Shown here: positions 34,800 through 36,881 of the stretch, in pieces
Layout of the letters: every line of letters starts with the position of its first letter
Position numbering within the stretch: the first letter of the stretch is position 1
Assembly (NCBI RefSeq): GCF_014333615.1
Contig: NZ_JACSCY010000001.1
Span: 1 to 64,000 of the forward strand
Direction: 5' to 3'
From: Hymenobacter citatus
GTDB taxonomy: Bacteria; Bacteroidota; Bacteroidia; Cytophagales; Hymenobacteraceae
Length of the DNA: 64,000 nucleotides
Translations under genes and position numbers: made by a program
Notes under the pieces: generated by a model
Databases searched by the model: none
Told to the model about the DNA's origin: nothing
The model's input: the letters and a program-made list of their open reading frames with translations, nothing else

Positions 34800-34909
34800 C
34801 CCTGTGCTTTGTGAAAGCAGTGAATAGTGCTAGTGTGCTTTATCCTTAGTATTCAGCGCCGAGAGGCATGTTCTACGACCCCAACGTGCTTACGGACTTG
34901 GAAAGTGGG

Positions 34910-35075
34910 GTGGCTACATACGAAAAATAGCTCGCTAACCCCTATCATTGACAGCAATGCCGCTCAACTCAAAGAGGCAATCATGAAGTTTGAGCAAGTG
35001 AAGAAGGGCCTAGACAAAACGAGCAGGTGCTGGGAGCAAGTAGTAAAGCGCGTGGAAGAGTTGGAAAGGTTGTAG
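34910..35075 (+). pseudogene. Decayed copy of an ABC-F C-terminal tail
   Basis: Conceptual translation VATYEK-stop-LANP, then after a one-base shift near 34943, IIDSNAAQLKEAIMKFEQVK KG. This lines up with the end of the intact ABC-F protein: AQYEAQLADPQIYQNAAQLK followed by DATLKFEQVKKEL. A stop codon (34928-34930) and the +1 shift show it is not a gene. It marks a former second ABC-F copy or partial duplication, now separated from the intact gene by the glycosidase gene. Confidence 0.75.
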
Positions 35076-35121
35076 AACCATTGTTGCGTTGCTCTTTAAC
35101 GCAGCTGCAATAGCTGAAAAA

Positions 35122-35170
35122 GCCGCTGGGCAATGGGGGAGAAACGTTTTTTATTCCCTCGCCCAGCGGC
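35122..35170 (+). terminator. Hairpin downstream of the ABC-F remnant
   Basis: 10-bp perfect stem GCCGCTGGGC (35122-35131) with 35161-35170, extended by A/T pairs; 29-nt loop, then TCTTTCGCC. Probably the terminator of the lost gene. Confidence 0.6.
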
Positions 35171-35195
35171 TCTTTCGCCTTCAGATGCTCCTATT

Positions 35196-35374
35196 AAACA
35201 GGATAATTGTATAACTATAGTATGACATAATAGAATTCAATTGAAAAAATATTTTATAAAATATATGAATAGTATAATAATGTATCCTACATTTGAAGCA
35301 GTTACTGCTGCCGTTGACGTCCGGGAGCAGCAACATCTTCTCAACCATTTCATTATTCACTAACCGTTCTTCAC
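35196..35374 (+). promoter_or_regulatory. AT-rich leader of the exosortase locus
   Basis: 35196-35285 is strikingly AT-rich for this genome (for example AAAATATTTTATAAAATATA near 35247-35266). TACATTTG at 35288-35295 fits the Bacteroidota -7 box TAnnTTTG, so transcription could begin near 35300, leaving an untranslated leader of about 75 nt before the ATG at 35375. No TTG at the standard -33 distance. Confidence 0.5.
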
Positions 35375-35584
35375 ATGAAGATTGTTACCAACGCATTGCG
35401 CTTTGCCATCACAGCCTTTCTGCTGACCCGCGCTGCCGCTCCTGCTCAAGCCAGCGATATCTTACTACCCGTACCAGTACAGGATTGCCCGCCGCCCACG
35501 CATGCTCCCATCGACGGTGGTGCTTCGGTACTGCTCGCTGGCGGCGCGGCCTACATGGTGCGTCGCATCCGGAAAAACAAATAA
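35375..35584 (+). CDS. Mini PID-CTERM protein, predicted exosortase substrate
   Basis: A 69-residue protein. Layout: signal peptide (about 1-26, ending APAQA), a mature stretch of only about 20 residues (ILLPVPVQDCPPPTHA, with one Cys), then a C-terminal tripartite sorting signal: the PIDGG motif, a hydrophobic segment (ASVLLAGGAAYMV) and a basic tail (RRIRKNK). This is the design of PEP-CTERM-like signals, here the PID variant associated with exosortase X. It is directly followed by a terminator and then the exosortase gene, which supports a substrate role. The mature product would be tiny. Confidence 0.85.
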   Translation: MKIVTNALRFAITAFLLTRAAAPAQASDILLPVPVQDCPPPTHAPIDGGASVLLAGGAAYMVRRIRKNK

Positions 35585-35592
35585 TGTGCAGG

Positions 35593-35646
35593 AGTAGCTT
35601 TCCGTTGTGCCTCTACCATACAGAAGAGGCACAACGGAAAGCTGCT
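35593..35646 (+). terminator. Strong terminator between substrate and exosortase genes
   Basis: 22-bp stem with one G-T pair (35593-35614 with 35625-35646; core TTTCCGTTGTGCCTCT), 10-nt loop, then TTTATTTTTTT. It would end most transcripts after the small substrate gene, letting only read-through reach the exosortase. Confidence 0.88.
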
Positions 35647-35680
35647 TTTATTTTTTTGCTTACTCTATAATAGTTGCTTT

Positions 35681-36229
35681 ATGCCCCGGCTACATCCGTT
35701 GTTGCGTGTAGGTATCATTGCCGTTAGCCTGTATCTGCTCTGGTTTTTTGGGTATGAGCAGTGGCTGGCACCAGATGGACGCTTAGACGCCGTGCTCATG
35801 CACAACCTAGCGGCCGCCGGCGCGGCTGTGCTGCGTATGGCAAACTACCAGGCTATGGTGCCCGATGCGCAATCCAACGTGCTGTTTCTCAATGGGGTGC
35901 CCGCCGTAGTAGTAAGTGCCCCCTGCGATGGATTGGTGTTGTATGCATTATTTACTGGCTTCGTGCTTGCCTTCCCAGGCCCAATACGCCATAAGCTGTG
36001 GTTTATTCCGCTCGGCAACTTACTGATCTACGGAATCAACGTGCTGCGTATTGCCGCCTTAGGTATCAACCAGTACTACGCACACGAGTCGGTGGATTTC
36101 AACCACCACTACACGTTTACGTTCGTTGTGTACGCCTTCATTTTCTTGCTCTGGATGTGGTGGGCCACGCGTCTGGCTACCCGCAAGTCTGCGCCTACCC
36201 AACCAGACACTACCTACGCGTATGCCTGA
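35681..36229 (+). CDS. xrtX: Exosortase (XrtX-like)
   Basis: A 182-residue integral membrane cysteine transpeptidase with about five helices. The exosortase catalytic set is visible: Cys82 in VVVSAPCDGLVLY, Arg123 in LLIYGINVLRIAALG, and His142/143 in FNHHYTFTFVVYAF. The protein should cut PID-CTERM signals at the inner membrane and pass the substrate on to an acceptor, as exosortases/archaeosortases do. The length is close to that of compact Bacteroidota exosortases. Its stop overlaps the next ATG, indicating translational coupling. The X subtype is assigned from memory of the family and the PID-CTERM partner. Confidence 0.88.
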   Translation: MPRLHPLLRVGIIAVSLYLLWFFGYEQWLAPDGRLDAVLMHNLAAAGAAVLRMANYQAMVPDAQSNVLFLNGVPAVVVSAPCDGLVLYALFTGFVLAFPGPIRHKLWFIPLGNLLIYGINVLRIAALGINQYYAHESVDFNHHYTFTFVVYAFIFLLWMWWATRLATRKSAPTQPDTTYAYA

Positions 36230-36749
36230 GGCTGCTCCCTACCCAATGCCAACACCGATGAGCATCTCTGCACCGCGCACGCTGCTGCGTTGGGGTGGAG
36301 TGGTACTGCTAGTGCTCTTCCTGTTTTGCCTGACGTGGTACACGGAGGAGTTCTACGCCTCTTTGACACCCGCATGGGAGCGTCTATTGGCTGCCATCGG
36401 TATCGGCTCTGCCATGCAGCACGATGAGGCCGCGCTGCACCTCATGAACCGGACGCGCAGTGTACCCGTTGCCGGCCTGTACGCTGTGCTGTACTTGGCT
36501 GCCTGCTTGGCATTAGTGCGATTGCTCTTGGTGAGTGCACAGCAATGGCGCTTGGCGATGTTGTTTTATGCAGTGGCAGGTGGAAGTGGGATATTGCTTT
36601 TGCTAGTAGGAAAACTGCTGGCCCTACCTGCCGCCTATGCCCTCAGCAGCCAGATCATTCATTTCATTCTGTCGCCGGTAGCTGTAATAATGCTGGTGCC
36701 AGTGCTACGGTGGTACGCACCCATCGCGCCGGCTGAAAGCACGCAGTAG
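36222..36749 (+). CDS. Exosortase-associated membrane protein
   Basis: A 175-residue protein with four predicted transmembrane helices (about 22-38, 86-106, 112-130, 140-160) and an extracytoplasmic loop rich in charged and aromatic residues (WYTEEFYASLTPAWERL). Its ATG at 36222 lies inside the end of the exosortase gene (8-bp overlap), so the two are very likely made together. It matches my recollection of a conserved 'XrtX-associated membrane protein' of Bacteroidota. Its job is unknown; it may help the sorting enzyme or hold the acceptor. Confidence 0.78.
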   Translation: MPEAAPYPMPTPMSISAPRTLLRWGGVVLLVLFLFCLTWYTEEFYASLTPAWERLLAAIGIGSAMQHDEAALHLMNRTRSVPVAGLYAVLYLAACLALVRLLLVSAQQWRLAMLFYAVAGGSGILLLLVGKLLALPAAYALSSQIIHFILSPVAVIMLVPVLRWYAPIAPAESTQ

Positions 36750-36816
36750 GGTTCATCGGGTGTAAGGGTAAATGGGGTAGCAGGGTTGGAGTAAAAAGTT
36801 CCGACTATTTTAGCCG

Positions 36817-36860
36817 ATGGCTGATGCAGTAGCAAGGCATATTGCTCCCGCATCAGCCAT
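36817..36860 (+). terminator. Hairpin after the exosortase operon
   Basis: 11-bp stem ATGGCTGATGC (36817-36827) with 36850-36860, and a nested AGCAA/TTGCT stem in the loop, followed by TGTTATTTTG. Ends 21 bp before the next ATG, so it might also influence the plug gene. Confidence 0.6.
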
Positions 36861-36881
36861 TGTTATTTTGCTTCTCGTCTT

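What the first reader, a model, noticed from the sequence alone, without database searches (positions are those of the whole stretch)
35288..36749. Self-contained exosortase locus with a 69-residue PID-CTERM substrate
Seen: a tiny protein with signal peptide, about 20 mature residues with one Cys, then PIDGG, hydrophobic segment and basic tail; next an exosortase with Cys82/Arg123/His142-143; then an overlapping small membrane protein. Known: exosortases cleave PEP-CTERM-like signals and process proteins for the surface. Inferred: a dedicated system for a very small surface peptide in a T9SS organism. The substrate is so short that it looks more like a peptide or anchor than an enzyme.
Basis: partly seen in the sequence, partly recalled or inferred. 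Interest (0 to 1): 0.78.

Follow-up and report, generated by a model that had tools for sequence, protein, structure and literature searches.

The report
Tiny exosortase substrates behind T9SS giants
This three-gene locus of a Hymenobacter bacterium encodes a membrane protease, its partner and a 69-residue protein that the protease would likely trim to a peptide of about 20 residues; in relatives most such tiny genes examined lie directly behind genes for giant proteins tagged for another export route, so the two routes are predicted to work together.

Summary
NCBIfam already names all three genes: PID-CTERM mini-protein, exosortase X (XrtX) and XrtX-associated membrane protein. I found no paper on them in the library held. 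Cys82, Arg123 and His142 are kept at 77 of 79 XrtX loci; His143 is not. The locus is not self-contained: a second mini-protein is encoded elsewhere in the genome, and relatives hold up to eight matches. Tiny size is the family rule: 108 of 113 distinct frames gave a predicted cargo of 7-44 residues, median 18, under purifying selection. New here: of 97 mini-genes not next to xrtX, 87 lie just behind a gene ending in a T9SS type A sorting domain, and a terminator-like hairpin follows 72 of these 87. So the mini-protein looks like a co-expressed companion of T9SS giants. Best reading: XrtX trims it and the peptide serves as envelope partner or anchor of the giant; cleavage, acceptor and pairing are inferred. 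Against: neither copy in this genome sits behind a giant, the sibling's copy is frameshifted, and another close relative lacks the locus.

The parts
34802..36880 (.). Cassette absent from a close relative: genome G170 has the two flanks 163 bp apart
34890..35068 (+). Segment 73% identical to the 3' end of the ABC-F-like gene (named by eye) in sibling G112, where it stands just before the cassette; sign that the cassette moved with a piece of its old neighbour
   Evidence: peptide similarity to the end of the ABC-F-like protein seen by eye
35288..35295 (+). TACATTTG, fits the Bacteroidetes -7 promoter motif TAnnTTTG (motif recalled); aligned unchanged in sibling G112
   Evidence: weak at family level, 20 of 107 against a shuffle mean of 10.1 and maximum of 19
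35375..35584 (+). PID-CTERM mini-protein gene, 69 aa
35375..35446 (+). Predicted signal peptide, residues 1-24 (cut APA|Q)
   Evidence: simple rule
35447..35506 (+). Predicted cargo peptide, residues 25-44: QASDILLPVPVQDCPPPTHA
35507..35581 (+). PID-CTERM tail, residues 45-69: PIDGG, hydrophobic helix, basic end
   Evidence: match to residues 45-68
35593..35646 (+). Long hairpin followed by a T-rich stretch to about 35657: terminator-like, between the mini-gene and xrtX
   Evidence: fold -43.2 kcal/mol, z -8.4; self-inverted match. The simple scan did not list it
35681..36229 (+). xrtX, exosortase X, 182 aa; Cys82, Arg123, His142
   Evidence: model mean pLDDT 89.2
36222..36749 (+). XrtX-associated membrane protein, 175 aa

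Best explanation
The locus encodes an exosortase of the XrtX family, its membrane partner and a PID-CTERM mini-protein that XrtX likely cuts next to PIDGG, leaving a predicted peptide of about 20 residues that would be fixed to the cell envelope. Steps. (1) Sec export and signal peptidase I remove the leader; in most relatives this would expose Gln, expected to become pyroglutamate by the Bacteroidetes Q-rule (inferred from the rule). (2) The PIDGG-helix-basic tail holds the peptide in the inner membrane (inferred). (3) XrtX with its partner cleaves at the tail through Cys82/Arg123/His142 and passes the new C-terminus to an unknown acceptor (inferred by analogy with archaeosortase A and sortase). 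(4) In relatives most mini-genes away from xrtX stand right behind a T9SS type A giant and before a terminator-like hairpin (shown), so the peptide probably serves as the co-made envelope partner or anchor of that giant (inferred). The window's mini-gene has no T9SS giant before it; it is the copy that travels with xrtX, from which a hairpin separates it.
For: All three NCBIfam cut-offs passed. XrtX and PID-CTERM occur together: in 150 family genomes both 70, XrtX only 1, PID only 2, neither 77 (Fisher p 3e-39, relatedness ignored). Catalytic residues kept at 77 of 79 loci. XrtX and partner are one open frame in three genomes. Cargo short in 108 of 113 distinct frames, first residue Gln in 94 of 108 by a rule that favours Gln; cargo dN/dS 0.121 (0.068-0.189) against 0.249 for the signal peptide and 0.089 for the tail, 14 independent pairs. 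The tail is found on a different body in two genomes: MSEP-CTERM proteins with a PID tail, as expected of a sorting tag. T9SS pairing: 87 of 97 mini-genes away from xrtX, plus two by eye; 23 of 55 xrtX-linked mini-genes against 3 of 55 on the downstream side. Terminator-like hairpin behind 72 of 87 such mini-genes, in 16 of 72 giant-mini gaps. In Flavobacterium johnsoniae, removing xrtF or its adjacent partner gene gives the same colonisation and biofilm loss (passages of PMC10936215); 9 of 81 XrtX partners match that partner family at E up to 0.1.
Against: No cleavage, acceptor or location was measured. In this genome neither mini-gene lies behind a T9SS giant: the window copy follows a gene without that tail, and the second copy precedes a secreted protein and then a T9SS giant. 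The window cargo lacks the GSGGP seen in many relatives. The sibling's copy is frameshifted, and G170 gave neither a mini-gene nor an active xrtX. 32 of 55 xrtX-linked mini-genes have no T9SS giant upstream. Adjacency may mean shared expression only.
Confidence: 0.5

Rival explanations
1. The mini-protein is processed by XrtX, but the pairing with T9SS giants reflects only shared regulation: both are surface products made at the same time, with no physical contact.
For: Diverse giants (11 N-terminal clusters among 20 read in full) go with one rather uniform peptide type; co-transcription would explain the order.
Against: A mini-gene behind each of 87 giants, with gaps of 100 nt or less in 84, is much repetition for mere co-expression; one mini-gene would do.
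Confidence: 0.22
2. The mini-protein is an uncleaved small membrane protein with two helices, acting as adaptor or chaperone; the tail is not a sorting signal.
For: The cargo can shrink to 7 residues (4 of 108); the tail has the lowest dN/dS, though its interval overlaps that of the cargo.
Against: Near-perfect co-occurrence with a protease that keeps its catalytic residues; the same tail ends MSEP-CTERM proteins of over 700 residues; 94 of 108 fit the Q-rule cut by a rule that favours Gln.
Confidence: 0.15
3. The processed peptide is released as a diffusible signal.
For: Short, Gly/Pro/Thr-rich, probably pyroglutamate-capped. One recurring neighbour cluster, in 6 of 94 loci, has a hybrid histidine kinase as its scanned member.
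Against: Exosortase-type enzymes appear to leave substrates anchored (passage of PMC11980579); up to eight PID-CTERM matches per genome; of the recurring neighbour clusters that I had scanned, none was an exporter.
Confidence: 0.1
4. In this species the locus is a degenerating or freshly moved copy without function.
For: Frameshift in the sibling's mini-gene, empty site in G170, changed position between species.
Against: XrtX dN/dS 0.06-0.10 against the sibling; in the mini-gene 21 synonymous and 3 other codon changes in 38 codons before the sibling's lesion, 12 and 1 in 27 after it; the window's frames are open.
Confidence: 0.1

Closest known systems
NCBIfam XrtX / PID-CTERM / XrtX-associated membrane protein (NF046081, NF046080, NF046082)
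   Same: All three genes pass the curated cut-offs.
   Different: The calls give names and cut-offs only; the models' own notes were not readable here.
Exosortase F system of Flavobacterium johnsoniae (XrtF TIGR04128 and partner TIGR04127)
   Same: Same two-protein layout; window XrtX scores 77.2 bits to XrtF (cut-off 90), and 9 of 81 XrtX partners match TIGR04127 at E up to 0.1, best 1.3e-7.
   Different: XrtF targets are not known (PMC12188702 passage). Among 30 XrtF-model loci I found PID-like tiny genes at 4 (L389, L391, L393, L394), which score 95.6-106.6 bits to the XrtF model, and at none of the other 26.
PEP-CTERM / EpsH (XrtA) system
   Same: Tripartite C-terminal signal plus Cys/Arg/His exosortase (recalled).
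   Different: PID in place of PEP, and much smaller substrates than PEP-CTERM proteins as I recall them. Sugar transferase genes or fragments of one cluster (L118 scanned: WcaJ type) lie near xrtX at 10 of 94 loci, not at the window.
T9SS type A cargo with PorU-dependent attachment to A-LPS (Porphyromonas gingivalis; recalled)
   Same: Giants beside mini-genes end in the T9SS type A domain (15 of 15 scanned pass a curated cut-off).
   Different: No mini-gene partner is recalled for P. gingivalis cargo. PMC7468200 (passages) speculates that genes related to the T9SS linking-sugar pathway serve exosortase systems, which would fit but was not tested.

Membership tests
Exosortase X (NF046081) | Curated cut-off of 170 bits | tested here: met
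   238.3 bits
Exosortase X (NF046081) | Catalytic Cys, Arg, His of exosortases | tested here: met
   Cys82, Arg123, His142; kept at 77 of 79 loci
Exosortase X (NF046081) | Cleaves a C-terminal sorting signal | not testable with these tools
   needs a mutant and mass spectrometry
PID-CTERM (NF046080) | Curated cut-off of 26 bits at the C-terminus | tested here: met
   45.6 bits, residues 45-68 of 69
PID-CTERM (NF046080) | N-terminal signal peptide | tested here: inconclusive
   simple rule finds APA|Q; no signal peptide predictor was used, and Arg19 lies within the hydrophobic stretch
XrtX-associated membrane protein (NF046082) | Curated cut-off of 75 bits and position next to xrtX | tested here: met
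   135.9 bits; overlaps xrtX by 8 nt
   second PID-CTERM gene at G000:C31:50446-50511, 45.1 bits
T9SS giant plus PID mini-gene unit (described here) | Mini-gene directly behind a gene with a T9SS type A tail | tested here: not met
   window: upstream gene has no such tail; own C31 copy: giant is downstream. Met in 87 of 97 unlinked mini-genes of relatives
PEP-CTERM/EpsH system | PEP motif | tested here: not met
   PIDGG

The most novel reading that the evidence does not exclude
PID mini-proteins are anchors in trans: XrtX fixes each roughly 20-residue peptide to an envelope acceptor, and the T9SS giant encoded just upstream docks on its own peptide once outside, so that an inner-membrane exosortase and the type IX secretion system jointly build one surface layer.
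Probability: 0.22. Interest if true: 0.87.

Novelty: new variant of a known kind. Interest (0 to 1): 0.62.

Why it matters
Exosortase targets in Bacteroidetes are an open question: XrtF of F. johnsoniae is needed for biofilm, yet its targets are not known (passages). The XrtX family shows substrates with almost no cargo, and most of those examined away from xrtX are tied by gene order to giant proteins of a different secretion system. If the pairing is functional, two surface-attachment routes studied apart belong together, and a one-gene deletion behind a giant would test it.

Tried and rejected
The T9SS plug gene as a functional neighbour: found near the cassette only in this genome and sibling G112 among the loci searched; rejected. 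Partner protein as a degenerate exosortase: helix order looked alike, but profile comparison gave probability 0.6%; not supported. PDB fold matches for XrtX and partner: none with E up to 0.001; none by sequence up to E 10. Cys in the cargo as a lipid or metal site: only 9 of 108 cargos have one; dropped. A TAnnTTTG promoter as family hallmark: weak. A tiny substrate at high-scoring XrtF loci: none found, in stretches that reach 1.5 kb on each side at most. Large PID proteins: of the long open frames that I fetched, L122 and L123 are real large proteins; L125-L129 and L251-L253 resolve to starts of 64-76 aa; for L124 the scripts found no PID frame, so it was left out.

Dropped rows and limits. 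One search dropped 5 of 113 frames: L046 (broken copy), L182 and L204 (no motif found), L122 and L123 (large proteins); its cut-site rule gives a bonus to Gln. One search tested 69 of 75 loci (6 gaps under 30 nt). One search used 89 of 124 distinct XrtX loci; short stretches were left out. Further controls of the T9SS count: 19 of 256 other frames of at least 250 codons in these stretches carry the tail; the downstream gene carries it in 6 of 32 xrtX loci without a local mini-gene. One search reported 203 matches by its per-genome counts, but its listing was cut; the 97 are the tiny ones that I had in hand and that had no xrtX in the stretch. The tail profile was built from 14 neighbours of xrtX, so the 23 of 55 partly rests on its own seeds; the 97 unlinked loci do not. 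Related species are not independent, and p values ignore this. Rows counted by eye: L283, L342. Open exceptions: L289, L297, L325, L343. The 20 giants read in full were my choice among the 87. Neighbours L232 (no family) and L199 (hybrid histidine kinase) were scanned and not followed.

Full report
What is there. The window holds a 69-aa ORF (35375-35584), an exosortase (35681-36229) and an overlapping 175-aa membrane protein (36222-36749), all on the + strand. NCBIfam names them PID-CTERM protein, exosortase X (XrtX) and XrtX-associated membrane protein, each above its curated cut-off; the next gene is a T9SS plug protein. The window's genome is taken as a Hymenobacter: contigs of same-genus handles have the lengths and positions of Hymenobacter records (for example 613,250 bases, H. 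telluris). So the kind was already named. In the library held I found no paper that uses XrtX or PID-CTERM in this sense, and none that holds both Hymenobacter and exosortase (searches 6, with 40 of 75 papers listed, 19 and 82).

Active site. 79 XrtX loci were aligned (81 rows, two being repeats). 77 of 79 keep Cys82, Arg123 and His142. The second His is not needed: Lys at 13, Asn at 1, Arg at 1. The two exceptions are second copies, in this genome and sibling G112, with Tyr for Cys and for His (see passing notes).

Partner. xrtX and the partner gene are one open frame of 361-363 codons in three genomes, G137, G184 and G186; in G137 the frame scores 184.5 bits to XrtX and 70.8 to the partner family, whose cut-off is 75. 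Such fusions suggest that the two work together. 9 of 81 partners also match the partner family of exosortase F at E up to 0.1, best 1.3e-7. In Flavobacterium johnsoniae the xrtF and the partner deletions have the same phenotypes: less sand colonisation, much less biofilm, zorbs abolished (PMC10936215, passages).

The substrate is tiny as a rule. From the loci in hand I collected 113 distinct PID-tailed frames; 108 could be scored. The stretch between the best signal-peptidase site and PIDGG is 7-44 residues, median 18; 94 of 108 start with Gln, by a rule that favours Gln; Gly, Pro and Thr make up 55%; Cys occurs in 9. The shortest, in four Bacteroidota MAGs, is seven residues. Gln after the leader fits the Bacteroidetes Q-rule (PMC5837995, start of abstract in the listing; PMC10653852, abstract). 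In 14 independent close pairs, chosen by XrtX identity, dN/dS was 0.249 (0.177-0.346) for the signal peptide, 0.121 (0.068-0.189) for the cargo and 0.089 (0.061-0.140) for the tail. The cargo is therefore kept by selection. Two genomes carry the same tail on MSEP-CTERM proteins of over 700 residues, which speaks for a transferable tag.

Not a closed pair. This genome has a second PID-CTERM gene on contig 31. Across 150 family genomes XrtX and PID-CTERM occur together in 70, XrtX alone in 1, PID alone in 2, neither in 77. Genomes with one XrtX hold up to eight PID-CTERM matches.

The new point: gene order. At 55 xrtX loci with a local mini-gene and enough flank, the nearest upstream gene on the same strand ends in a T9SS type A domain in 23; at 34 xrtX loci without a local mini-gene, in 0. 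On the downstream side it is 3 of 55 with and 6 of 32 without a local mini-gene (Fisher p 9e-6 for 23 of 55 against 3 of 55, relatedness ignored); among other frames of at least 250 codons in these stretches, 19 of 256. For mini-genes away from xrtX the rule is far stronger. Of 97 tiny ones, 87 lie behind such a gene on the same strand, with 84 of the 87 gaps at 100 nt or less. Two more are visible by eye (L283, L342), four stand beside a secreted protein with a common C-terminus (beta-helix by eye; no family found for the own copy), and four remain unexplained. The own genome has 54 T9SS type A tails, on the order of one gene in a hundred (gene number estimated from genome size). NCBIfam or Pfam confirmed the tail in 15 of 15 giants scanned, 7 of them xrtX-linked (14 by NCBIfam; L351 by Pfam alone). 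Twenty giants that I chose and read in full are frames of 864-1800 codons in 11 N-terminal clusters; the scanned ones show domains such as DUF4331, DUF4394, ice-binding, Ig-like, lectin-like and Receptor L. 84 of 87 are linked to one another by alignments of at least 300 residues; for the six references checked, similarity reached about 480-630 residues from the C-terminus, as far as the stretches go.

Transcription layout. A strong hairpin with a T run stands between mini-gene and xrtX in 33 of 69 loci (shuffles 0.05; control stretches before the mini-gene 3 of 66), including the window (z -8.4); the sibling's hairpin differs in sequence but passes the same scan. Behind unlinked mini-genes it stands in 72 of 87, but between giant and mini-gene in 16 of 72. 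So giant plus mini-gene looks like one transcription unit that ends after the mini-gene, with xrtX set apart.

The window locus itself is not typical. Its upstream gene (weak glycosidase match below the Pfam cut-off) lacks a T9SS tail. Its cargo lacks the GSGGP seen in many relatives. Sibling G112 has the cassette on the other side of that gene and a one-base frameshift in the mini-gene, with mostly synonymous changes on both sides of it. In G170 the site is empty: the flanks are 163 bp apart, and no mini-gene and no exosortase other than the Tyr copy was found. The cassette is thus easily lost and moved.

Mechanism. Shown: families, conserved residues, size, selection on the cargo, gene order, fusions, hairpins. 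Inferred: export, leader removal, pyroglutamate, cleavage by XrtX, the acceptor, and the partnership with the giants. Exosortases and archaeosortases appear to leave substrates anchored, perhaps as transpeptidases (PMC11980579, passages), and the acceptor is unidentified (PMC7468200, passages). That paper speculates that genes related to the T9SS linking-sugar pathway serve exosortase systems; gene order here now ties one exosortase family to T9SS cargo. Searches for papers joining the two (115, 116) gave four and three papers; I read passages of PMC7468200 and PMC10936215 only, and they did not describe this pairing.

Judgement. The locus is a genuine but named member of a known kind. What deserves attention is the family rule found around it. 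The step from gene order to joint function is the weak point.

Noticed in passing
L041:5973-6512 (own genome, G000:C27:5973-6512, - strand): Second XrtX copy with Cys82 to Tyr and His142 to Tyr, Arg kept, above the XrtX cut-off (186.7 bits). Close copies in 3 of 120 genus genomes (G000, G112, G170); dN/dS 0.08 (NG86) or 0.19 (YN00) between G000 and G112. No PID gene was seen in its stretches, G000 and G112 have one partner gene each, elsewhere, and G170 keeps it with no active XrtX found: a maintained pseudo-exosortase of unknown role.
   Followed up: partly
L344: G000:C31:42110-50724 (- strand): The genome's second PID mini-gene precedes a secreted protein (beta-helix by eye) whose end (..VPTIYQ.NQ..SGN.LN....TRSNN) recurs beside mini-genes in three other loci (L064, L251, L253), then a 2267-codon frame with a T9SS tail.
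   Followed up: partly
L122:1616-3781 and L123:1709-3862 (- strand): MSEP-CTERM/VIT-type proteins that end in a PID-CTERM tail: apparent swap of a sorting tag.
   Followed up: partly
L111, L115-L120, L236, L182, L093: Sugar transferase genes or fragments of one cluster near xrtX at 10 of 94 loci; the scanned one (L118) is a WcaJ-type undecaprenyl-phosphate glucose phosphotransferase: a link to exopolysaccharide in part of the family.
   Followed up: partly
18 of 94 XrtX loci, for example L181:2162-3415 (- strand): A recurring neighbour upstream of xrtX, usually on the other strand; the scanned one is a MoxR-type AAA ATPase.
   Followed up: no
window 34890-35068: Displaced copy of an ABC-F-like gene's 3' end, sign of how the cassette moved across its neighbour.
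   Followed up: partly
L046 (G112): One-base frameshift in the sibling's only PID match; real lesion or assembly error not decided.
   Followed up: partly
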